Assembly: GCF_012163135.1 (NCBI RefSeq)
Contig: NZ_JAAVUP010000008.1
Location: 62,001-126,000 of the forward strand
DNA from: Neoroseomonas oryzicola
GTDB lineage: Bacteria > Pseudomonadota > Alphaproteobacteria > Acetobacterales > Acetobacteraceae
Length of the DNA stretch: 64,000 bases
Direction of reading: 5' to 3'
Within the stretch, counting starts at the first letter, position 1; every line of letters starts with the position of its first letter. A program made the position numbers and the translations under genes. The notes beneath the pieces are model-generated. The model saw only the letters and a list, made by a program, of their open reading frames with translations. It was not told where the DNA came from and did no database searches. Of this stretch, positions 5,326 to 57,653 are shown piece by piece.

Positions 5326-6689
5326 GCGCGCCTCCGCAGCAGCAGCAGCACCGCGACCACCGGCAACAGCCAGGCGACCCGCGCCTGGTAGCGCGGAAAG
5401 ACGCCGGACAGCCCGCCCGTCGCCGCCGCATTCGCCACGATGCCGACGACCACCGCGACCGCGATCCAGATCCGCGTCGCCCCGCCTTGCAGCCACAGCG
5501 CAAGAAGGATCAGCGGCACGGCAGCCAGCAGGGCGGCGGCGTGCAGCGGCGCGAGCCAGGCCACGGCGTCGCGCAACGTCCCCCTCGACTGCCGCGCCGC
5601 ATCGAATGCCGCGACCTCCCGCGCCGGGAAGCCCTCGCGGATGCGCGGCCGCAATGCCGTTGCCAGGTGGTCGGTGCCGAGCGTGTCGCCGATCCCCGCT
5701 GTCGCCACCTGCGCCGCGGTGTTGCGCAGGATCGCCGCCGCCACGGCAAGCGGGTGCTCGCGCAGCGTGATCGCGACGATCTCGCCCGCCTCCGGCGACA
5801 GCAGCGCGCCGCCGAGGAAGCGGGCGCGCCCGTCCGCATCGCGGTTCACCGGGCTGTCCGGCGCCCAGAGGAAATCGTTGGCATCCATCGGCAGGCGGTC
5901 GGCGAAGGCGCAGAGATACCACCCGGCCGCCGGGCAGCGCGCCTGGATGACCTCGGCGGCCGGCCCATCCGCCTGCAGCCGTGCGAGCAGGAAGGTCGCC
6001 CCATGCGGCGACAGCACCGCCCGGCCATGCCCGACCGCATTCGTGACCAGCAGCACCGCGACCGCCGCGACGAGTGGCACGGCGGCCGCGACGGCGCCGC
6101 GCCACCGCCCGCCCAGCACCGCCACGCCCACCATCGCGACCGCCAGCGGCACATGCGCCAGATGCGCCGCGATGCCGATCGTCGCGACCACGCCCAGCCA
6201 CACCCGCTCGGCCCGCGACAGCGACGATCCCGCGAAGCCCAGCAGCGCCAGGGCCAGCACCACCACCGGCGCGAAGACATCCGGCATCAGCAACGCGACC
6301 GTGAAAGGCGCCGTCGTCGACGCCGCCGCGACCAGGCACACGCCGATATGCCCCGCGGCGGTCGCCCCGCCGCGCAGCACCCGCTGCGTCACCCACAGGA
6401 TGTGCGAGACGATCAGCGCCTGCGCCGCCATCGGCAGCCACAGCGTCACGCCCCAATGGAACAGGTGCAGGAACGGGCCGTAGACCCACGGCTTGTCCCA
6501 CAGCATCAGCGGACCGAGCGTCTGGTGCAGGAAGCCGCCGGTGTCGCTGAAGACCAGCGGGTAGCCGTTCAGCAGCGCAGGCCAGACCAGCAGGACGGTC
6601 CCGAGAAGGATCGGGGGGAAGGGAACTTCCCCCCGAGCCCCCCAACCTTCTTTGGCATTTGGGGACGGAGCAGCGTCGGGGAGGTTCAC
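5322..6689 (-). CDS. Polytopic membrane protein, possible GT-C-fold glycosyltransferase (paralog A)
   Basis: Upstream paralog of the 3931-5325 gene, 455 residues. The two share long conserved stretches throughout (ALLNGYPLVF, YGPFLHLFHWG, LWVTQR, LMPDVFA, SPHGATFLLARLQADGP), indicating a tandem duplication. Between the moaE stop and helix 1 there is no ATG in frame. The only usual start is GTG 6689, which sits in the loop of a hairpin belonging to a dispersed repeat (6612-6697). The first ~26 residues (MNLPDAAPSPN...) are thus repeat-encoded and do not match the paralog, whose homologous sequence begins only around PPILLG. Either the repeat supplied a new start or a rare start codon is used. 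Function as for the paralog, inferred only. Confidence 0.78.
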   Translation of the reverse strand: MNLPDAAPSPNAKEGWGARGEVPFPPILLGTVLLVWPALLNGYPLVFSDTGGFLHQTLGPLMLWDKPWVYGPFLHLFHWGVTLWLPMAAQALIVSHILWVTQRVLRGGATAAGHIGVCLVAAASTTAPFTVALLMPDVFAPVVVLALALLGFAGSSLSRAERVWLGVVATIGIAAHLAHVPLAVAMVGVAVLGGRWRGAVAAAVPLVAAVAVLLVTNAVGHGRAVLSPHGATFLLARLQADGPAAEVIQARCPAAGWYLCAFADRLPMDANDFLWAPDSPVNRDADGRARFLGGALLSPEAGEIVAITLREHPLAVAAAILRNTAAQVATAGIGDTLGTDHLATALRPRIREGFPAREVAAFDAARQSRGTLRDAVAWLAPLHAAALLAAVPLILLALWLQGGATRIWIAVAVVVGIVANAAATGGLSGVFPRYQARVAWLLPVVAVLLLLRRRA

Positions 6690-26944: not shown

Positions 26945-26948
26945 GCGT

Positions 26949-27083
26949 CGGAGGGGCGCTGCCCCTCCGAACCACCCCGCCAGGGGGCTGCGGCCCCCTG
27001 GACCGCGGGAACTTGAGTGTTGGTTTCCAAAGGCCTCTGGGCCTTTGGCGGGGAGAGCCCGAGAGGGGCAGCGCCCCTCTCGG
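26949..27083. repeat. Four tandem perfect hairpins (dispersed repeat family)
   Basis: The gap between the convergent hemY and CoxL-like genes is almost entirely four perfect hairpins. They are 26949-26969 (9-bp, GCT loop), 26980-27001 (9-bp, TGCG loop), 27027-27048 (CCAAAGGCC/GGCCTTTGG, 9-bp) and 27059-27083 (11-bp, AGC loop). The CCAAAGGCC unit and the GC-cap palindromes recur at 52320-52570 and 54701-54906. It could work as a two-way transcription terminator. Confidence 0.8.
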
Positions 27084-41552: not shown

Positions 41553-41654
41553 TCGGGGGAGGAGAACCTCCCCCGAATCCCCCTCCCTTCTCTGGTCACT
41601 TGGTTCCAAAAAAGGTTGAGGGGGGTCCGGGGGGAGAAGTTCCCCTCTCCCCCC
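41553..41654. repeat. Dispersed hairpin repeat, short type (copy 2)
   Basis: A hairpin at 41553-41576 (10-bp stem, AGAA loop) and one at 41629-41654 (9-bp stem) are joined by a spacer containing TTCCAAAAAAGGTTGAGG. The layout and sequence match the copy at 6612-6697 (there in reverse). It fills the gap between the convergent GMC oxidoreductase and glutamate dehydrogenase genes and could terminate both transcripts. Confidence 0.78.
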
Positions 41655-41662
41655 GTTCTTCC

Positions 41663-50544: not shown

Positions 50545-51240
50545 ATGCGAGGCCTGCTGACCCTGTTGCTGCTGCTGCCGCTCGCCGCCTGCGGCAATGC
50601 CACGGGCGCAGACCTGCTGCGGGCTGCGGTCTGGCCGATACCGCTGCCGGATTCGCTGTTCACGCCGTCGGACCCGGTGCCCCAGGGCGAATGGGACGCG
50701 GCGGAAGCCTCGCCGGAGGACGGCGAGACGGCCCTCGCGCTCGCTCTCGGCAGCCGCCGCGGCCTCGCTCGCCTTACCCAGGCGGAAGGGGAACGCCGCA
50801 TGTGGCGGACCCAAGGCGGCGTGGTGGTCGCAACCGATGGCCCGCGCGTCGTCGCCACCGCGGGCCTGCGCCAGGTCCTCGCCGCGACGCGCTTCGACGG
50901 CGGCACCGACCCCCTCGCGCGGCTGTCCGAGATCGGGGACGGCACCTACCGCAGCGCCCGGGTGATCGACGTGATGCGCTCGGCGAGCGACCCGGCGCGG
51001 ATGCGCTTCGGGCTGCGCCTGGACTGTGCGCTGCGCGCAGCGCCTTCCCCCGCCGAGGACACGCTGCTGTTCGAGGAATCCTGCCGTGGCGCCGCGCGCT
51101 TCACCAACCGCTTCTGGGCGGATGCGCGGTCCTATGCCGTGTTCCGGTCCGAGCAGTGGATCGGGGACGACCTGCCGCCGCTGGTGGTCGAGGTGGTGGG
51201 CGCGCCGCCGCCCGCCGAGGTCATCACCCTGCCCAGGTGA
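50545..51240 (+). CDS. yjbF: YjbF/GfcB family exopolysaccharide lipoprotein
   Basis: A 231-residue lipoprotein (MRGLLTLLLLLPLAACGN, lipid Cys16) of the YjbF/GfcB (DUF2886) family found in group 4 capsule and Yjb exopolysaccharide operons. Family marks are ERRMWRTQGGVVVATDGPRV and VATAGLRQVLAATRFDGG, followed by the later LLFEESC region. It has no ribosome site and a -10-like TATATT just upstream, so it may be leaderless. Its 3' end overlaps the convergent WecA-like gene by 17 nt. It is one piece of the polysaccharide locus that continues with yjbH and an SLBB export gene. Confidence 0.85.
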   Translation: MRGLLTLLLLLPLAACGNATGADLLRAAVWPIPLPDSLFTPSDPVPQGEWDAAEASPEDGETALALALGSRRGLARLTQAEGERRMWRTQGGVVVATDGPRVVATAGLRQVLAATRFDGGTDPLARLSEIGDGTYRSARVIDVMRSASDPARMRFGLRLDCALRAAPSPAEDTLLFEESCRGAARFTNRFWADARSYAVFRSEQWIGDDLPPLVVEVVGAPPPAEVITLPR

Positions 51241-52279
51241 GCCCCGCCCGCCGCATCCGCCGCACGACATAGGCGAGCCAGGCCGCCTGCACCGCCAGCG
51301 CCGGCAGCACCACCATCGGCTTGCTGCCCACCGGCAGTTCCAGGAAGGCCCAGGCCAGCAGCCCGTGGAACAGCACGAAGCCCCAATGCACCGCGGCAAC
51401 GGCCCGCACGCCAAGGCCCGATCGCTGCGCCATCTGGTAAAGGTGCGTCCGGTGCGCCGCCGCCACGCGTTCGCCCATCGCCGCGCGCCGCAGCAGCGTG
51501 AAGCCCGCGTCGAACAGCAGCCCGAACAGCAGCAGCGGCACGATCAGGAAGGAGATCTGCGCCGCATCGAAGCGCGCCGCCGCCACCGCCAGCACCGCCA
51601 TCACGAAACCAAGGAACTGGCTGCCCACATCCCCCATGAAGATCCGCGCGGGATGCAGGTTGAAGGGCAGGAACCCCGCCAGCCCCGCCGCGAGGAACAG
51701 GGAGGCCGCATAGACGAACCACCCGCCCTCCTGCCCCGCGATCACGCACAGGATCACGGAGGCGAGGAACACCGACCCGCCGACCAGGCCGTCCAGCCCG
51801 TCCATGAAGTTCATCGCGTTGGTGCAGCCGACGATCCAGAACAGCGTCAGGCCCACGCCGATCCAGCCGAGCGGCACCTCGCCCCAGACCGGCAGCGCCA
51901 CGCGCTCGAGCACCAGGCCCGATCCGATCGCGACCAGCGCGGCGATCGCCTGCGCCGCGAGCTTCACCGAGAAGCGCAGGTCGGCGACGTCGTCCCACAG
52001 CGACACGCCGGCGATCGCCACGGCCGCCGCGATCACGCCGACGAACTGCGGCGGCGGCAGCCGCGCGAAGGCCGCCGCGACATACAGCACCGCCATCCCC
52101 ACCACGAAGGCGAGCACCACGCCCACCCCGCCGCCACGCGGCGTCGGACGCACATGGCTCGACCGCGCATTGGGATGGTCGAGGATCGGCCAGGCGATCA
52201 TCGCCCGCACGGCCGCCGCGGAGAGCAGCGCCAGCGCGGCCGCGAAGGCCAGGTGCCGGAGGACGGCTTCGAGCAGCAT
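51224..52279 (-). CDS. WecA/MraY-type undecaprenyl-phosphate sugar-1-phosphate transferase
   Basis: A 351-residue polytopic membrane enzyme that starts a lipid-linked glycan by moving a sugar-1-phosphate (often GlcNAc) from UDP-sugar to undecaprenyl phosphate. Motifs are HPNARSSHVRPTPRGGG, the Asp pair D96-D97 in SLWDDVADL, TNAMNFMDGLDGL (154-165) and FMGDVGSQFLGF. The C-terminal R-rich loop region after helix 8 (VAAAHRTHLYQMAQRSG) carries the HRTHLYQ motif for nucleotide binding. The gene converges with yjbF (17-nt overlap). A long composite repeat lies upstream. It would give this locus a second priming enzyme besides the sugar transferase at 61537. Confidence 0.93.
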   Translation of the reverse strand: MLLEAVLRHLAFAAALALLSAAAVRAMIAWPILDHPNARSSHVRPTPRGGGVGVVLAFVVGMAVLYVAAAFARLPPPQFVGVIAAAVAIAGVSLWDDVADLRFSVKLAAQAIAALVAIGSGLVLERVALPVWGEVPLGWIGVGLTLFWIVGCTNAMNFMDGLDGLVGGSVFLASVILCVIAGQEGGWFVYAASLFLAAGLAGFLPFNLHPARIFMGDVGSQFLGFVMAVLAVAAARFDAAQISFLIVPLLLFGLLFDAGFTLLRRAAMGERVAAAHRTHLYQMAQRSGLGVRAVAAVHWGFVLFHGLLAWAFLELPVGSKPMVVLPALAVQAAWLAYVVRRMRRAGLTWAG

Positions 52280-52319: not shown

Positions 52320-52570
52320 GGGGAGGGCGCTGCCCTCCCCGGCCCCCACCCGCCAAAGGCCTAAAGGCCCTTGGAACCCTCAACATGGCCGGGAGAGGGG
52401 AGGGGCGCGAGGCGGCCGCCGAGCCCGGCGCGCGCACGGTGCCCCTCCCCTCTCCCGGCCATCTCCTGGTGTCCAGAGGCCCTTCGGCCTCTGCGGGCAC
52501 CCAGTGACGTTGCGAAGCAACGCCACTGGGAACCCGTGGTGGGGGGAGGTCCGGCGGGGGGCAAAGCTCC
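52320..52570. repeat. Composite nested-hairpin repeat, long type (copy 1)
   Basis: Ordered modules: a 21-nt cap palindrome (52320-52340), a CCAAAGGCC hairpin with one mismatch (52353-52374), and a perfect 22-bp stem (52385-52406 with 52441-52462) around a 34-nt loop. A CAGAGGCC/GGCCTCTG hairpin (52474-52493) and a 13-bp stem with one A/C mismatch (52500-52530) follow. The tail resembles the short-type repeat. The first four modules match the copy at 54701-54906 in order and exact spacing. It fills most of the 307-nt gap between yjbH and the WecA-like gene, where no ORF is seen. Confidence 0.85.
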
Positions 52571-52586
52571 TCTCCGCCCGGCACCC

Positions 52587-54737
52587 TCACCGCGTGAACC
52601 ACCCCGCCCCGCGTTGCAGCGAGTCCTCCCGCCCGTCCCGCGTCAGGTCCCACAGTTGGTTGTCCACCTGCAGTCGCTGCCCACCGTCGCGCTGCGTCGG
52701 GCGGATCACCGCGCCGAAGGAGGAGCGGCTCTGCACCCCGAAGATGTCGAGCGGGATGCGGAAGAAGATCCCCTTGTCGAAGGACCCCTCGCCGAAGCGG
52801 GAGAAGGACACGTCCGTCAGCGTCGCGAAGGCACCGACCTCGATGCCGGAATCGAAGCGGCGCGCGATCTCGACCGTGCCGCCCCAGTCTCCGGCCAAAT
52901 AGCGCCCGCCGCGCAGCGTCGTGGTCAGGTTCCACCAGGGCAGGTCGGCATAGACCGAGACCTGCCCGGTCGTGACCCGGTAGTCCTGCAGACCGAAGCG
53001 CTGGTCGTAATCGCGCTGCCCGACATAGGCGATGTCGAGCCCGAGCCCCCAGGGCCGGTCATGCGGCCGCCACAACACCTCGCCCGAGATGCCGGCGAAC
53101 ATCGGCTCGAGGTAGCCGGCGCTGGCGCGCGCGAAGACGTCGGGCGCGAGGGACCAGAGCCCCTCGGCATAAAGCGTCGGAACCGCGAGGGTGCGTCCTT
53201 CCTCCGCATAGAACGCATAGTCGGACCGCACATGCGGCAGCACGCTGTCGGACGGCAGGGCGCTGTTCAGGTTCTGTGCCACCACCTGCGCCACGCTGCC
53301 CGCGATCGAGACGCCGGCGCCGAGTTCGACCCGCGCGCTCGCCGCCAGCGCCACCTGCCACAGCACGGTGCGCGACGGATCGCCCAGGATCACCCGCGCC
53401 CGTGGCTCGAACCCCCAGTCGATGAATAGGCCGGTCGCGCGGGCGGCATTCTCGAAGGGATCGCCCGGGGCCATCAGCATCGCGGTGGCGAAGACCTCCT
53501 CCGCGCTGCCATGGCCGCGCGCGGCGGCTTCCATCGCGGATCGCAGCACCATCAGCCGCGCGATCTCGAGCCCGTCCCGCGACCAGGCGATGACCACGCG
53601 CTCGACCTCGGGCGGCAACACCGGCTGCACCGCGCGCACCACGCGCCCCGCGACCTGCGCCAGCGTCCGGAACCGCCCACCGGAGACAGCGATGCGCGCC
53701 TCCTGCCCCTCGATCGCGAAGGCGGTGCCGCGCAGCCCGGCCTCGTCGAGTGCTGCGAAGATGCGCGGCGCCAGCGCGCGCGATTCAGCCGAACCGCCCT
53801 CGGCCGGGCGCGACGCCATCGCCGGCGGCGCGGGCAGCGGCGCCCGCGGCGGATCGGCCGCATCCATGCGGATCGACGCCCGCAGCAGCACATCCGTCCC
53901 GTTCACGTAGTTCACGCCGATGTCGAGCCAGTCATTCGTCCATTGCAGCCCGGCATTCACCCGCGTGCGCGTCTCCCCGCGCAGGTTCGTCGTGTTGCCG
54001 GGATAGCCGCCGCGCTCGTCCCGCAGCCTGTCGCCGCTGACCTCGACCTTCGCGCGCAACCCCTCGAACACGCCCCAGGGCGTCGGGATCGGCGGGACGC
54101 TCCACTCCACGCCGCCGAAGAAGGCGATGTCCTCGCCGTGGAAATAGGTCCCCCAGCGCGGCGTGCCGCCCTGCCCCACATTGCGCGTGCGGTTCGCGAA
54201 GCCCGACCAGAGATCCGTCAGCGGATTGGGCGCATCCGCCTCGGTCCCGATCCGCCCCCAGCCAATGCCCAGCGAAAAATCGAAATCCCAGAACCGCTTC
54301 GACGCGACCAGGTATTCCCCGCCATAGATCCCCGTCCCCGCGATGTCCTGGATCCCGACGGCGAGCGCCGGCCGCCAGTCATTCTCCTCCCAGAGCCGGA
54401 TCTTGATGTCGAAGGACCGGTCCGAGCTCATGCCCTCCCCGGTCGTGCCATTCAGCCGCTCCCCGACCCGAAAGGTCGTCTCGAGCCAAGGCAGCGCCTG
54501 GAACCCCAGGAAATAGAACTGCCGCTGGTGCCGCAGCGACGTCCCGGCCTCCATCGTCCCATCCGGCCGGAACCGCGCATTGCGCATCTCGATCAACCCA
54601 ACCCCGCCCCAGTCCGACCCCGTCCCCTCCACGACCTGGGCTGCGACGCGCGCGGGAGCGAACAGGAGCAGGAGGAGGGCGAAGGTAGCGATGGCGGCGC
54701 GGGGAGGGCGCTGCCCTCCCCAAACCCCTCCCGCCAA
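52587..54737 (-). CDS. yjbH: YjbH-type exopolysaccharide outer-membrane protein
   Basis: About 716 residues. After a signal peptide (IATFALLLLLFAPARVAAQ) the protein has the YjbH/DUF940 pattern: GVGLIEMRNARFRPDGTMEA, LPWLETTFRVGERLN, FDIKIRLWEENDWRPALAVG with IQDIAGTGIYGGEYLVASKR, and a C-terminal GTVEIARRFDSGIEVGAFAT region. YjbH is a predicted outer-membrane beta-barrel or lipoprotein-like partner in exopolysaccharide export. No ATG or GTG exists between the repeat and the signal peptide. The only usual start is TTG 54737, inside the CCAAAGGCC hairpin of the repeat at 54701-54906. The gene is bracketed by two long repeats. Confidence 0.85.
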   Translation of the reverse strand: MAGGVWGGQRPPRAAIATFALLLLLFAPARVAAQVVEGTGSDWGGVGLIEMRNARFRPDGTMEAGTSLRHQRQFYFLGFQALPWLETTFRVGERLNGTTGEGMSSDRSFDIKIRLWEENDWRPALAVGIQDIAGTGIYGGEYLVASKRFWDFDFSLGIGWGRIGTEADAPNPLTDLWSGFANRTRNVGQGGTPRWGTYFHGEDIAFFGGVEWSVPPIPTPWGVFEGLRAKVEVSGDRLRDERGGYPGNTTNLRGETRTRVNAGLQWTNDWLDIGVNYVNGTDVLLRASIRMDAADPPRAPLPAPPAMASRPAEGGSAESRALAPRIFAALDEAGLRGTAFAIEGQEARIAVSGGRFRTLAQVAGRVVRAVQPVLPPEVERVVIAWSRDGLEIARLMVLRSAMEAAARGHGSAEEVFATAMLMAPGDPFENAARATGLFIDWGFEPRARVILGDPSRTVLWQVALAASARVELGAGVSIAGSVAQVVAQNLNSALPSDSVLPHVRSDYAFYAEEGRTLAVPTLYAEGLWSLAPDVFARASAGYLEPMFAGISGEVLWRPHDRPWGLGLDIAYVGQRDYDQRFGLQDYRVTTGQVSVYADLPWWNLTTTLRGGRYLAGDWGGTVEIARRFDSGIEVGAFATLTDVSFSRFGEGSFDKGIFFRIPLDIFGVQSRSSFGAVIRPTQRDGGQRLQVDNQLWDLTRDGREDSLQRGAGWFTR

Positions 54738-54906
54738 AGGCCTAAGGGCCTCTGGACACCATGAATTGGGTGGTTGGAGGGAGGGGCTCGGAGCGACCGC
54801 TTGGCCCGTCGGCCCCGCGGCGCCCCTCCCTCCAACCACCCAAGTATCGGGTTCCAAGGGCCTTTCGGCCCTTGGCGGGGGGTGCAGGGGGGCGGCGTCC
54901 CCCTGC
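54701..54906. repeat. Composite nested-hairpin repeat, long type (copy 2)
   Basis: Modules: a cap palindrome identical to that of copy 1 (54701-54721), a CCAAAGGCC hairpin (from 54735), and a perfect 22-bp stem (54766-54787 with 54822-54843) around a 34-nt loop. CCAAGGGCC/GGCCCTTGG (54854-54875) and an 8-bp hairpin (54884-54906) complete it. The cap-to-stem distance is 44 nt and the stem-to-next-hairpin distance 10 nt, exactly as in copy 1. The stem sequence itself differs but stays perfectly paired. It lies between yjbH and the SLBB gene and overlaps the yjbH 5' end. Confidence 0.87.
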
Positions 54907-54938
54907 GGCCGACCTTCGCCTGCCAGCGCCTCCACCGG

Positions 54939-57653
54939 CTACCGGTTCGCCTCGCGGGCGATCACCGCCAGGGCGGCGGCGGAGACGGAGACTTGGCCGA
55001 GGACCTGGGTCAGGTCGCGCACGAAGCCCCAGGTTTCGTAGGGGCTTGGGTCCTGGGGGACGACGACGAGGCTGCCGGGCGGGACGGGCGGGCCGCCTTG
55101 CTGCCAGGCTGAGAGGCCGGCGGCGGTGGACTGGCCGTTGGGCAGCACGATGAAGCCGCGGGAGGGGTCGGCGAAGCGTTGCGTGCCGCCGGCAGCGCGG
55201 ACGTAGTCGCTAGCGCGCCAGCCGGAGCGGAACTGCAGGGATCCGGGGTTGAGGACGGAGCCGACGACGGTGATCTCGCTCGGCCGCTTGGGCATGGCGA
55301 TGACGTCGCCGGGCTCGAGGAGGACGTCGAGCTCGGGGCGGGCGGCGAGGATGACGGGATTGGCCTCGACCACCATGCGCCCGGCGGCGCGGGCTTCGCG
55401 GAGCGAGTTGGCGAGCTCGCGCCCGGCGGTGATGGCCGAGCCGACGTCGATGGTCGATCCGCGCGTGCCGGCGACGGCTTGGCCGGCGGCGACCTGGATC
55501 AGGCTGGTCTCGAGCTCGCGCGCGGTTCGGGCGAAGCCTTCCTGCTGGCGCTGGCGGACGGAATCGCGCGTGAAGACGGCGCCGTAGGGGTAGGCCTGGG
55601 GCGTCAGGCCGCCGGCGCGGGCGATGACCTCGGACAGGCGCTCGCCGCGGCGGATGTCGTAGGTGCCGGGGCGCAGGAACTCACCGACCAGGATGACGGG
55701 CCCGGTGTCGCGGTCGCCGAAGGCGCGCGGGATCCGCACGGTGTCGCGTGGGGACAGGCGCACCGCGGCGAAGTTCCGGCTGGTCAGGTCGAGCCGCGTC
55801 CGGGCGAGCGGGATCGCCCCGCCCTGGTCCGGCGGCTCGCGCGCGAATTCCACGACGCGCAGGTCGGCTGCGTCCGACAGCCCGCCGGCCGAGGCGATCA
55901 GCAGGTCGAGTCCGGTGTCGTCCACGATCGGCATCGGGCCAGGCGCGCGGACCTCGCCCGTCAGCACGACGGTCTGGTCGAGCAGGTAGGAGGCGAGGTC
56001 CGGGTAGTCGGCCATCACCTGCGGGCAGGTGGTCGGCCCGATCTCGGGGAAGCCGGCGCCCTTCACATGGGCAAAGCGCTGCGGTGACGCGCGCGAGGCG
56101 AGCGCGAGCGTCGTCAGCGCCGCGCAGTCGGGCGGCGGCGGCGCGCCGGGCTGCGGGATGGCCGCGGCGGGCGCCTCGCCCCGCAGCGCGCGCTGCACGG
56201 CGGGCGAGGCGAGCCAGGCGATGTCCGCGCGGCCGAAGACGATGACCTCGTCCCCTTCGTGCAGCGCCATGTTGGCGCGACCTTCAAGCACGCGGCCGAG
56301 GTCGAAGGGGATGAAGCCGCGACTGCCGGTCTGCCGGTCGGCGCGCCACACGACGCCGAGGCGGACGTAGGGATCGTTGCGCAGCAGCCGCCGGTCGGAG
56401 ATCAGCCCGCGCAGCGTCTGGCTCTGCCGCCCGCCCGCCGCGGCGCGCGTCACCGGGATCGAGACATGCCCGGCGAGCCGCACCTGGTTCGCCACCACGT
56501 CGGCGCCGGGCTGCACCAGCACGGCATCGCCGCGCCGCACGGTCTGCGCGGGCGAAAGTTCGGCATAGGACCGCCGCCCCGCGCCGTCGTTCTGCTGCAC
56601 CATCAGCCGGTTGCCGCCCTGGCGGATGGTGCCGCCGGCGAGCGCCAGCATGGCCGCGAGCGGCGCGCCGGACTGGCCCGCCGGCAGTTCGTAGATCGCC
56701 GGCCGCGCGACGTCGCCCGCCACCGCGACGGTGCCGCCGACGGGCGGGACGATGATGCGGTCGCCCTCGCGCAGCGAGAGGTCCGCATCGCCCGGCGCGT
56801 CGGCGATGACGCTGTAGAGATCGACGACGCGCCGACCCCGCGGTCCCTCGATGCGGATGGCGCGCAGCGATCCCGTCTTGCGCACGCCGCCGGCGGCCGA
56901 CAGCGCGTCGAGCGCCGTCGACAGGGCGTTCAGCGGCTGGAAGCCGGGCCGCATGACCTCGCCGGCGACGAAGATGTTCATCTGCCGGACCTGGCCGATG
57001 GAGAGGAACACCTCCGACCCCGCCAGGTCCCGCGCGGCGAGGCCTTCGAGATGCGCGCGCAGGTCCTTGAGGCTGCGTCCGGCGGCGGGCACCGGCGCGA
57101 TGTCGGGCAGCATCAGCATCCCGTCGCGGCCGATCCGCAGCGTCAGCGTCTGCCGCGCGCGGCCGCGGAAGGCGAGGATCACCTCGTCATCGGGGCCGAG
57201 CACGTAGTCCTCGGGCAGCGCGCCGAAGCCCGGCGGCGGCGCGGGGCCGGCACGGAAGGTCTCGTAGCCGAACTGGCGCAGCACCGGCGGGTCGAGCCGC
57301 GCGGCGAAGAAGGCCTCGGCGGCCGAGAGCGGTTCCTCGGGCGCAGCGGACGCGGCGAAGGCAGGCAATGGCGCAGCCTGGACGGGCGCGCGTGGTGCGC
57401 TGCCCGGCAGGCCGGATGGCGGGCCGCGCGTTGCGCCGGCATCGAGAAGCCGTTGCAGCACGTCCTGCTGCACCCCCGGCGGCAGGCTCGGCAGCGGCGC
57501 CCCGCCCGGCAGGACCGAGGGCAGCGTGGGCGGCGCGAGCAGCGGCGACGGCCCTGGGCCCGTCTGCGCCAAGCCGACCGTCGCGCCCAGGGCCAGCGCG
57601 AGCGCGACCGCCAGGCCCAGCCAAGATCGGGAGCGGCGCGGCGGCTTAGGCAT
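54939..57653 (-). CDS. Polysaccharide export protein with multiple SLBB domains (long Wza-like)
   Basis: A 904-residue exported protein, far longer than classical Wza (about 380). Signal peptide (LGLAVALALALGATVGLA then QTG) and a Pro-rich stretch precede a Poly_export domain (LPEDYVLGPDDEVILAFRGR, about 145-235). Successive SLBB-type segments follow (IFVAGEVMRPGFQPLNALST, VAVAGDVARPAIYELPAGQS, VVLTGEVRAPGPMPIVDDTG, ILVGEFLRPGTYDIRRGERL, ITVVGSVLNPGSLQFRSGWR), ending in a hydrophobic tail. No lipobox is seen. It should form or extend the outer-membrane exit channel for exopolysaccharide. It is divergent from the heparinase-like operon and probably heads the operon with yjbH. Confidence 0.93.
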   Translation of the reverse strand: MPKPPRRSRSWLGLAVALALALGATVGLAQTGPGPSPLLAPPTLPSVLPGGAPLPSLPPGVQQDVLQRLLDAGATRGPPSGLPGSAPRAPVQAAPLPAFAASAAPEEPLSAAEAFFAARLDPPVLRQFGYETFRAGPAPPPGFGALPEDYVLGPDDEVILAFRGRARQTLTLRIGRDGMLMLPDIAPVPAAGRSLKDLRAHLEGLAARDLAGSEVFLSIGQVRQMNIFVAGEVMRPGFQPLNALSTALDALSAAGGVRKTGSLRAIRIEGPRGRRVVDLYSVIADAPGDADLSLREGDRIIVPPVGGTVAVAGDVARPAIYELPAGQSGAPLAAMLALAGGTIRQGGNRLMVQQNDGAGRRSYAELSPAQTVRRGDAVLVQPGADVVANQVRLAGHVSIPVTRAAAGGRQSQTLRGLISDRRLLRNDPYVRLGVVWRADRQTGSRGFIPFDLGRVLEGRANMALHEGDEVIVFGRADIAWLASPAVQRALRGEAPAAAIPQPGAPPPPDCAALTTLALASRASPQRFAHVKGAGFPEIGPTTCPQVMADYPDLASYLLDQTVVLTGEVRAPGPMPIVDDTGLDLLIASAGGLSDAADLRVVEFAREPPDQGGAIPLARTRLDLTSRNFAAVRLSPRDTVRIPRAFGDRDTGPVILVGEFLRPGTYDIRRGERLSEVIARAGGLTPQAYPYGAVFTRDSVRQRQQEGFARTARELETSLIQVAAGQAVAGTRGSTIDVGSAITAGRELANSLREARAAGRMVVEANPVILAARPELDVLLEPGDVIAMPKRPSEITVVGSVLNPGSLQFRSGWRASDYVRAAGGTQRFADPSRGFIVLPNGQSTAAGLSAWQQGGPPVPPGSLVVVPQDPSPYETWGFVRDLTQVLGQVSVSAAALAVIAREANR

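What the first reader, a model, noticed from the sequence alone, without database searches (positions are those of the whole stretch)
52320..54906. Two long intergenic repeats with fixed geometry and compensatory change in a 22-bp stem
Copies at 52320-52570 and 54701-54906 share an identical 21-nt cap palindrome, then exactly 44 nt, then a perfect 22-bp stem with exactly a 34-nt loop, then 10 nt and a further CC(A/G)RGGCC-type hairpin. The loops are clearly homologous (about two thirds identical without gaps). The stem sequences differ strongly, yet each is still perfectly complementary. Paired sequence divergence with preserved geometry means that structure, not sequence, is selected or copied. 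It is a candidate structured RNA or DNA element of an unnamed family.
Basis: seen in the sequence. Interest (0 to 1): 0.72.

Follow-up and report, generated by a model that had tools for sequence, protein, structure and literature searches.

The report
Covarying DNA triple-helix repeats at gene ends
The two repeats belong to a large family of DNA elements between genes whose hairpins and a neighbouring third strand change together as a three-stranded DNA helix would require, which is unusual evolutionary evidence that such a structure matters in living bacteria.

Summary
In detail: two homologous elements, perfect 22-bp stems of different sequence, 34-nt loops, fixed spacing. Their family has at least 89 matches in this Neoroseomonas genome and occurs in 35 of 60 sampled genera of its taxonomic family.

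The strongest signal was missed: the linker is the mirror, not the reverse complement, of the cap's 3' arm. It tracks the purine arm by the code of a purine-motif intrastrand DNA triplex (G.G-C, A/T.A-T): 7.5 of 8 against 5.1 with shuffled linkers. In 1.2 Mb scanned without a model, 45 of 65 asymmetric purine hairpins have a perfect third strand. At two orthologous sites all three strands differ together. A second subfamily obeys the same rule.

Cap and P2 pairs change on both sides, almost without G-U intermediates: a DNA element rather than an RNA. Elements favour gene 3' ends and sometimes invert internally. They resemble in kind the E. coli PIT/BoxC triplex repeats. Function is inferred, not shown.

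The parts
52320..52340 (+). element 1, left cap hairpin (purine arm GGGGAGGGC / GCCCTCCCC)
52344..52351 (+). element 1, left third strand CCCCACCC, parallel to the purine arm; on the minus strand GGGTGGGG, antiparallel (class I triplex)
   Evidence: (perfect class I hit at 52340 -)
52353..52374 (+). element 1, left P2 hairpin CCAAAGGCC..GGCCCTTGG; tail AACCC follows at 52375-52379
52385..52406 (+). element 1, central stem 5' arm (22 nt)
52407..52440 (+). element 1, 34-nt loop
52441..52462 (+). element 1, central stem 3' arm
52473..52493 (-). element 1, right P2 hairpin, followed by an extra hairpin at 52500-52530
   Evidence: R1 match 52466-52526 at 36.1 bits
52538..52578 (-). element 1, right third strand and cap, degenerate
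   Evidence: R1 match 52527-52575 only at E 0.26
54701..54721 (+). element 2, left cap hairpin
54725..54732 (+). element 2, left third strand CCCCTCCC (minus strand GGGAGGGG); eight G.G-C / A.A-T triplets
   Evidence: (perfect class I hit 54721 -)
54734..54755 (+). element 2, left P2 hairpin; tail ACACC at 54756-54760
54766..54787 (+). element 2, central stem 5' arm
54788..54821 (+). element 2, 34-nt loop
54822..54843 (+). element 2, central stem 3' arm
54854..54875 (-). element 2, right P2 hairpin, tail GGGTT just before it on the plus strand
54877..54884 (-). element 2, right third strand (GGGGGGTG on the plus strand)
54884..54906 (-). element 2, right cap hairpin (one mismatched pair here)
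26948..27082 (.). third element of the same family: two inverted halves (26948-27008 +, 27020-27082 -) with a short spacer
   Evidence: 50.8 and 78.1 bits
6611..6646 (+). second subfamily: hairpin CGGGGGGAAG-GGAA-CTTCCCCCCG and third strand CCCCCCAAC, nine of nine triplets
41553..41655 (.). second subfamily, inverted pair: GGGGGAGG/CCCCCTCC (41553-41586) and GGGGGGAGA/TGAGGGGGG (41617-41655)

Best explanation
The elements are DNA-structure repeats at gene 3' ends. Each is an inverted pair of intrastrand-triplex modules around a long hairpin or a short spacer. In each module a purine-arm hairpin is followed on the C-rich strand by a segment that is the mirror of its pyrimidine arm. On the G-rich strand this is a third strand antiparallel to the purine arm, with G opposite G-C and A or T opposite A-T, so the single strand can fold into a class I purine-motif triplex (order: third strand, purine arm, loop, pyrimidine arm). 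Selection, or survival only of fold-competent copies, keeps the three strands matched (the match is shown by sequence statistics; its cause is inferred). The central hairpin arms and the orientation of the inner cassette are also reshaped by template switching between inverted repeats (inversion shown at two sites, mechanism inferred). Inferred function: when DNA is single-stranded or strongly supercoiled at transcription ends, above all between convergent genes, the folded element acts as a structural boundary that absorbs supercoiling or stalls polymerases.
For: Three-strand rule: 53 halves of this genome score 7.51 of 8 in parallel, 5.07 +/- 0.22 with linkers shuffled among caps (2000 shuffles, maximum 5.77), 4.79 with the arm reversed. 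Opposite G the linker has C in 340 of 348 positions; opposite A it has A or T in 61 of 66 (A 33, T 28), as the purine motif allows, whereas a pyrimidine motif would want T only. In elements whose two caps differ, a linker fits its own cap better in 68 of 72 halves and the partner's in 1. Three 400-kb stretches of this genome taken without regard to elements: 65 asymmetric purine-arm hairpins, 47 fit parallel better, 10 antiparallel, 8 tie; perfect third strand 45 parallel, 4 antiparallel (3 of these fit both ways); three Markov versions of the same 1.2 Mb gave 1 to 3 hairpins and no perfect third strand. Model-found loci of other genera of the family: 34 informative, 24 fit parallel better, 1 antiparallel, 9 tie, with arms such as AGGGGAGG, GGGGGAAGG, GGGGAGGA. 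Orthologous three-strand changes at L061/L304 and L116/L279, among 50 cap-flank readings. A second subfamily obeys the rule. DNA-type change: 99 two-sided cells to 1 one-sided. Position: 24 codirectional, 24 convergent, 1 divergent, 13 unclear of 62; divergent avoided (p 0.002), convergent enriched (p 0.01) against 107 background gaps. Inversions L041/L303 and L333/L278.
Against: No triplex was measured. For the E. coli triplex repeat Holder et al. found stable folding of oligonucleotides but no triplex signal in double-stranded DNA and no protection in DMS footprints in vivo, and report that earlier work found no promoter or terminator activity (PMC4666352). Shuffles do not correct for relatedness of copies. 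The two three-strand changes could be one conversion event each. One own half breaks the rule (L036 left). The P2 tail follows the rule in three hairpin types but not at the first position of the CCGAGGG type (11 of 53 rows), and tail and 3' arm may simply be linked by descent. The first 400-kb stretch alone was weak (12 hairpins: 5 parallel better, 3 antiparallel, 4 tie). 65 of 118 caps in the cap-only scan show no third strand. The functional step rests on position alone.
Confidence: 0.62

Rival explanations
1. A structured RNA, for example a bidirectional terminator or mRNA 3'-end stabiliser; hairpins form in transcripts of either strand.
For: Strong hairpins on both strands; position at gene 3' ends; covarying stems.
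Against: Almost no G-U intermediates in cap and P2 helices (1 one-sided cell against 99 two-sided; the central stem has 5 one-sided cells against 64); no clear strand bias (10 against 7); the mirror rule is not an RNA pairing rule and the purine motif does not form in RNA (stated in PMC4666352); no Rfam match at gathering score in four loci, and only sub-threshold hits around the two repeats.
Confidence: 0.13
2. A purely mutational product: polymerase template switching between inverted repeats keeps arms complementary and flips spacers, with no selection on structure.
For: PMC8604942 abstract describes both outcomes in yeast; inner cassettes inverted at 2 of 16 scored orthologous sites, end motifs swapped at window element 2 and, by eye, at L032/L307; perfect arms.
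Against: Template switching makes reverse-complement copies and cannot make or maintain a mirror copy; the cap/linker match is the strongest signal.
Confidence: 0.1
3. A non-autonomous mobile element of REP/REPIN type, moved by a RAYT-like transposase that recognises folded single-stranded ends.
For: Inverted pairs of palindromes, many copies, inner cassettes with unlike ends (24 of 28 combine ACACC with AAACC or AACCC, and none has two equal ends).
Against: No Y1 transposase (PF01797) in the genome, and only 2 of the 35 element-bearing genomes of the family sample have one; six sites chosen without regard to N. marina (three in the window, L002, L016, L017) all have an element at the orthologous place there, once partly deleted; GTAG in only 2 of 53 halves. 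Other transposase families were not searched.
Confidence: 0.1
4. A protein-binding site (gyrase or a nucleoid protein, as proposed for E. coli BIMEs; recalled) whose protein reads both arm and linker.
For: Same kind of genomic position as recalled for REP/BIME elements.
Against: Many different arm sequences are matched by the linker (14 different 7-mers with a perfect parallel linker), which a sequence-reading protein would hardly produce.
Confidence: 0.05

Closest known systems
Intrastrand triplex repeats: PIT elements / BoxC / TMECO of E. coli and other proteobacteria (Holder et al. 2015, PMC4666352, sections read; Hoyne and Maher papers known here only through it)
   Same: G/C-rich intergenic repeats with three tracts that can fold into a purine-motif intrastrand triplex; in E. 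coli five inverted pairs occur and each combines a type A and a type B copy; here too the paired inner ends are unlike (24 of 28 ACACC with AAACC or AACCC, none equal).
   Different: TMECO is class II (pyrimidine, purine, third strand); these are class I (third strand, purine, pyrimidine). The exact TMECO pattern has no match in this genome. Here there are two hairpins per module, often a long covarying central hairpin, many different arm sequences, and three-strand covariation. TMECO lies more often upstream than downstream of genes; these avoid divergent gaps.
REP / BIME / REPIN elements with RAYT transposases (PMC3733652 one passage; PMC3116915 listing only)
   Same: Palindromic units, inverted pairs, intergenic, many copies.
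   Different: No Y1 transposase in the genome, no conserved GTAG tag, much longer central stem, third-strand rule.
H-DNA mirror repeats (as described in PMC4666352)
   Same: Pyrimidine arm plus linker form a mirror repeat.
   Different: H-DNA folds from double-stranded mirror repeats; here hairpin and third strand lie one after another on one strand.

Membership tests
Intrastrand triplex motif, class I (Holder et al. definition) | consecutive third-strand, purine and pyrimidine tracts of 6-15 nt, antiparallel third strand, at most one mismatch, short loops (that paper: 1-6 nt) | tested here: met
   five perfect 8-nt class I hits in the window, 0 in each of 20 Markov resamples; loop limits there 0-6 and 1-7 nt, slightly wider than the paper's; 45 of 65 asymmetric purine hairpins in 1.2 Mb.
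Intrastrand triplex motif, class I | the strand folds into a triplex (CD, NMR, melting) | not testable with these tools
   needs oligonucleotides
TMECO / BoxC | pattern CCCTCNCCC-N3-6-GGGNGAGGG-N3-GGGNGAGGG (class II) | tested here: not met
   0 matches in the whole genome (exact pattern; the paper allows one mismatched pair, which was not tried)
REPIN / REP-RAYT | cognate Y1 (RAYT) transposase in the genome or lineage | tested here: not met
   none in the own genome; 5 of 60 family genomes, 2 of the 35 with elements
REPIN / REP-RAYT | GTAG or related tag at the hairpin foot | tested here: not met
   GTAG in 2 of 53 halves, CGTC in 6, GACG in 11, anywhere in the half with 8-nt flanks
Known structured RNA family | match to an Rfam model at gathering score | tested here: not met
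   none in four loci; 18 hits in the window stretch, each below its family's gathering score

The most novel reading that the evidence does not exclude
A widespread bacterial DNA element is under selection to fold as a triple helix: three strands co-vary by the purine-motif code across many genera of Acetobacteraceae, with sparser cases in Rhodobacteraceae and Chloroflexi, in at least two subfamilies of unlike sequence, and the folded element acts at transcription ends.
Probability: 0.5. Interest if true: 0.87.

Novelty: new variant of a known kind. Interest (0 to 1): 0.72.

Why it matters
Whether intrastrand DNA triplexes do anything in living cells is open: the E. coli repeats fold as oligonucleotides but showed no triplex signal in vivo and no clear function (PMC4666352). 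Covariation of strands is the kind of evidence by which RNA helices were recognised, and here it involves three strands, which points to the three-stranded form being what is kept. Because the third strand can be mutated without touching any hairpin, the question becomes directly testable. It is also a caution: perfect but differing stems in repeats can come from template switching, so stem covariation alone is weak evidence of function.

Tried and rejected
Rejected: structured RNA as the main reading; RAYT-mobilised REPIN; antiparallel pairing of the linker with its own cap or fit to the partner's cap; recent insertion at the six sites tested. G-quadruplex formation on the G-rich strand was not excluded by a test; it would not require the A/T positions of linker and arm to agree.

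Led nowhere or was repaired: one search read loci of minus-strand matches in the wrong orientation and was replaced; one search read the wrong side of minus-strand loci and was completed; one search picked wrong segments and was replaced. Paper searches (4, 0, 0 and 0 papers) gave nothing on this family. One search (8-nt all-purine arms) found 8 hairpin loci, 5 parallel and 1 antiparallel, in the first 400 kb. One search pooled those 400 kb with the window (20 hairpins, 13 perfect parallel, 2 antiparallel), which mixes a chosen with an unchosen stretch; one search separates them (first stretch 6 perfect parallel of 12, window 7 of 8) and adds two further stretches.

Dropped rows: one search listed 120 P2 readings (a palindrome is read on both strands); 53 had an accepted cap and entered. 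One search listed 38 candidate long elements; one search kept 27 loci, and 28 cassettes for the end types, relatives included. could score 16 of 35 orthologous pairs; 19 had no recognised P2 pair. One search examined 52 loci: 5 without a recognised cap, 9 with mirror-symmetric arms (no information), 38 informative, 4 of them from the own genus. One search used the 80 listed of 117 stretches; one search used all 117. One search's second test used only C-rich flanks with asymmetric arms (282: 165 parallel better, 29 antiparallel better, 88 tie; perfect 140 against 27), mostly from loci that were fetched because they hold an element.
Full report
What is there. They lie in the two gaps between three genes of one orientation: a polysaccharide export protein (SLBB/Poly_export, 54939-57653), a YjbH protein (ending at 52587) and a glycosyltransferase of family 4 (51224-52279) (Pfam). 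A BLAST search of the genome with the second copy gave 73 matches. A covariance model of the half element, built from 53 halves, gave at least 89 matches in this genome (89 is the number scored) and matches in 35 of 60 genomes of the family, each of another genus. Contig lengths identify the close relative G084 as Neoroseomonas marina JC162 and G085 as N. alkaliterrae DSM 25895, so the window is from a Neoroseomonas.

Anatomy. A module is a cap hairpin with a purine 5' arm (for example GGGGAGGGC-GCT-GCCCTCCCC), a C-rich linker, a second hairpin P2 (CCAAAGGCC-NAA-GGCCTTTGG or variants) and a tail (AAACC, AACCC or ACACC). Two modules may face each other; others are single. In the long form 24 of 28 cassettes (this genome and relatives) combine an ACACC end with an AAACC or AACCC end, and none has two equal ends.

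Stem covariation. In the 53 halves, 99.0% of cap and P2 cells pair; 99 cells are changed on both sides and 1 on one side only. In 17 central stems 93.5% of cells pair against 75.6% in shuffles, 64 two-sided cells against 22.6, 5 one-sided. G-U intermediates, expected for an RNA, are almost absent in the cap and P2 helices and few in the central stem.

The third strand. The linker reads as the mirror of the cap's 3' arm: GGAGGGG with CCACCCC, GAGGGGG with CTCCCCC, GGGGGAGG with CCCCCACC, GGAGAGGGG with CCTCTCCCC. Mean fit is 7.51 of 8; 5.07 +/- 0.22 with linkers shuffled; 4.79 with the arm reversed. Opposite A the linker has A 33, T 28, C 3, G 2; opposite G it has C 340 of 348. On the G-rich strand this is a third strand antiparallel to the purine arm with G.G-C and A.A-T or T.A-T, the purine motif; the order third strand, purine, pyrimidine is class I in the terms of Holder et al. 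(PMC4666352; outline and passages, introduction part 1, results parts 1-2, finder section, TMECO section and discussion part 1 seen). A pyrimidine motif on the C-rich strand would want T only. The linker follows its own cap, not the partner's (68 against 1 of 72 halves, 3 ties).

Tests not built on these copies. (a) Three 400-kb stretches of this genome, taken without regard to elements, hold 65 asymmetric purine-arm hairpins; 47 fit parallel better, 10 antiparallel, 8 tie; 45 have a perfect parallel third strand, 4 a perfect antiparallel one, 3 of these both. The first stretch alone was weak (5, 3, 4). Three Markov versions gave 1 to 3 hairpins and no perfect third strand. (c) Loci of other genera of the family found with the model: 34 informative, 24 fit parallel better, 1 antiparallel, 9 tie (the 4 informative loci of the own genus, all parallel, left out). 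The model favours C-rich linkers but holds no link between arm and linker. (d) The window scan also found 6611-6646 and 41553-41655, a second subfamily with other loops and no CCRRRGG hairpin: GGGGGGAAG with CCCCCCAAC, GGGGGAGG with CCCCCTCC, GGGGGGAGA with CCCCCCTCA; one search shows more of it (GGGGAGAAG with CCCCTCAAC).

Change between species. I aligned 35 sites with N. marina, 86-98% identical (nearly all the N. marina regions were chosen because they hold an element). Many elements are as conserved as their flanks. At two sites, among 50 cap-flank readings (a cap can be read from both sides), all three strands differ together: GGAGGGG/CCACCCC to GGGAGGG/CCCACCC (L061/L304) and GGGAGGGG/CCCACCCC to GGGGAGGG/CCCCTCCC (L116/L279). 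These may be single conversion events, but the outcome keeps the rule. Most other differences there are single changes, some of which break a pair or a triplet. L032/L307 looks inverted too (by eye). It cannot make a mirror copy.

Position. Of 62 elements of this genome 24 lie between codirectional and 24 between convergent genes, 1 between divergent genes and 13 were unclear (gene direction from codon-position GC). Against 107 background gaps of 60-400 nt (57 codirectional, 29 convergent, 21 divergent) divergent gaps are avoided (p 0.002) and convergent ones enriched (p 0.01). The background includes gaps that hold elements. The C-rich strand is sense in 10 and antisense in 7 single halves beside codirectional genes. 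Six sites chosen without regard to N. marina (three in the window, L002, L016, L017) all have an element, once partly deleted, at the orthologous place.

Interpretation. Shown: a multi-copy DNA element whose two hairpin arms and a third segment covary by the purine-motif triplex code, in two subfamilies and many genera, mostly at gene ends. Inferred: that the strand folds into a triplex in the cell and that folding is selected. Inferred more weakly: a role as a structural boundary at transcription ends. Against: the E. coli triplex repeat showed no triplex signal in vivo and, as Holder et al. report, earlier work found no promoter or terminator activity.

Novelty. The kind, intrastrand triplex repeats, is known; class I motifs are counted in the ITxF database, which I could not search. 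I found no paper on this family or on three-strand covariation in such repeats in searches of the open library, seen as listings except PMC4666352 and one passage of PMC3733652 (in PMC4666352 the word covariation does not occur). The exact TMECO pattern is absent here. I therefore file it as a new variant of a known kind.

Noticed in passing
window 54690-54941 and loci L124-L135, L148: The YjbH reading frame is open through the element up to the stop of the upstream gene in 10 of 10 genomes whose frame was recognised (0 stops, against 9 and 5 in the other two frames; 3 of 13 loci had no recognised frame). In this genome no ATG, GTG or TTG lies between the cap and the signal peptide, so translation may start inside the element.
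   Followed up: partly
window 6611-6646 and 41553-41655; further copies in L365, L366, L389, L390, L399 and L409: Second triplex subfamily with loops such as GGAA or AGAA and CTTCTTTGG-like downstream sequence, partly in inverted pairs.
   Followed up: partly
L172, L190, L218 (Candidatus Viridilinea), L170, L178, L187 (Rhodobacteraceae), L215 (Enemella): The same cap with a CCCC[AT]CCC linker occurs in distant groups; the 24 nt seen beside these caps show no CCRRRGGCC hairpin.
   Followed up: no
A1 rows, P2 hairpins: Where the two P2 arms disagree (6 of 53 rows), the tail follows the 3' arm, perhaps a trace of exchange or inversion with breakpoints in the P2 loop.
   Followed up: partly
window 52500-52530: An extra hairpin, CCCAGTGACGTTGC-GAA-GCAACGCCACTGGG with one mismatch, sits between P2 and the degenerate right cap of element 1; the aligned stretch is 92-100% identical per 50 nt in N. 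marina.
   Followed up: no
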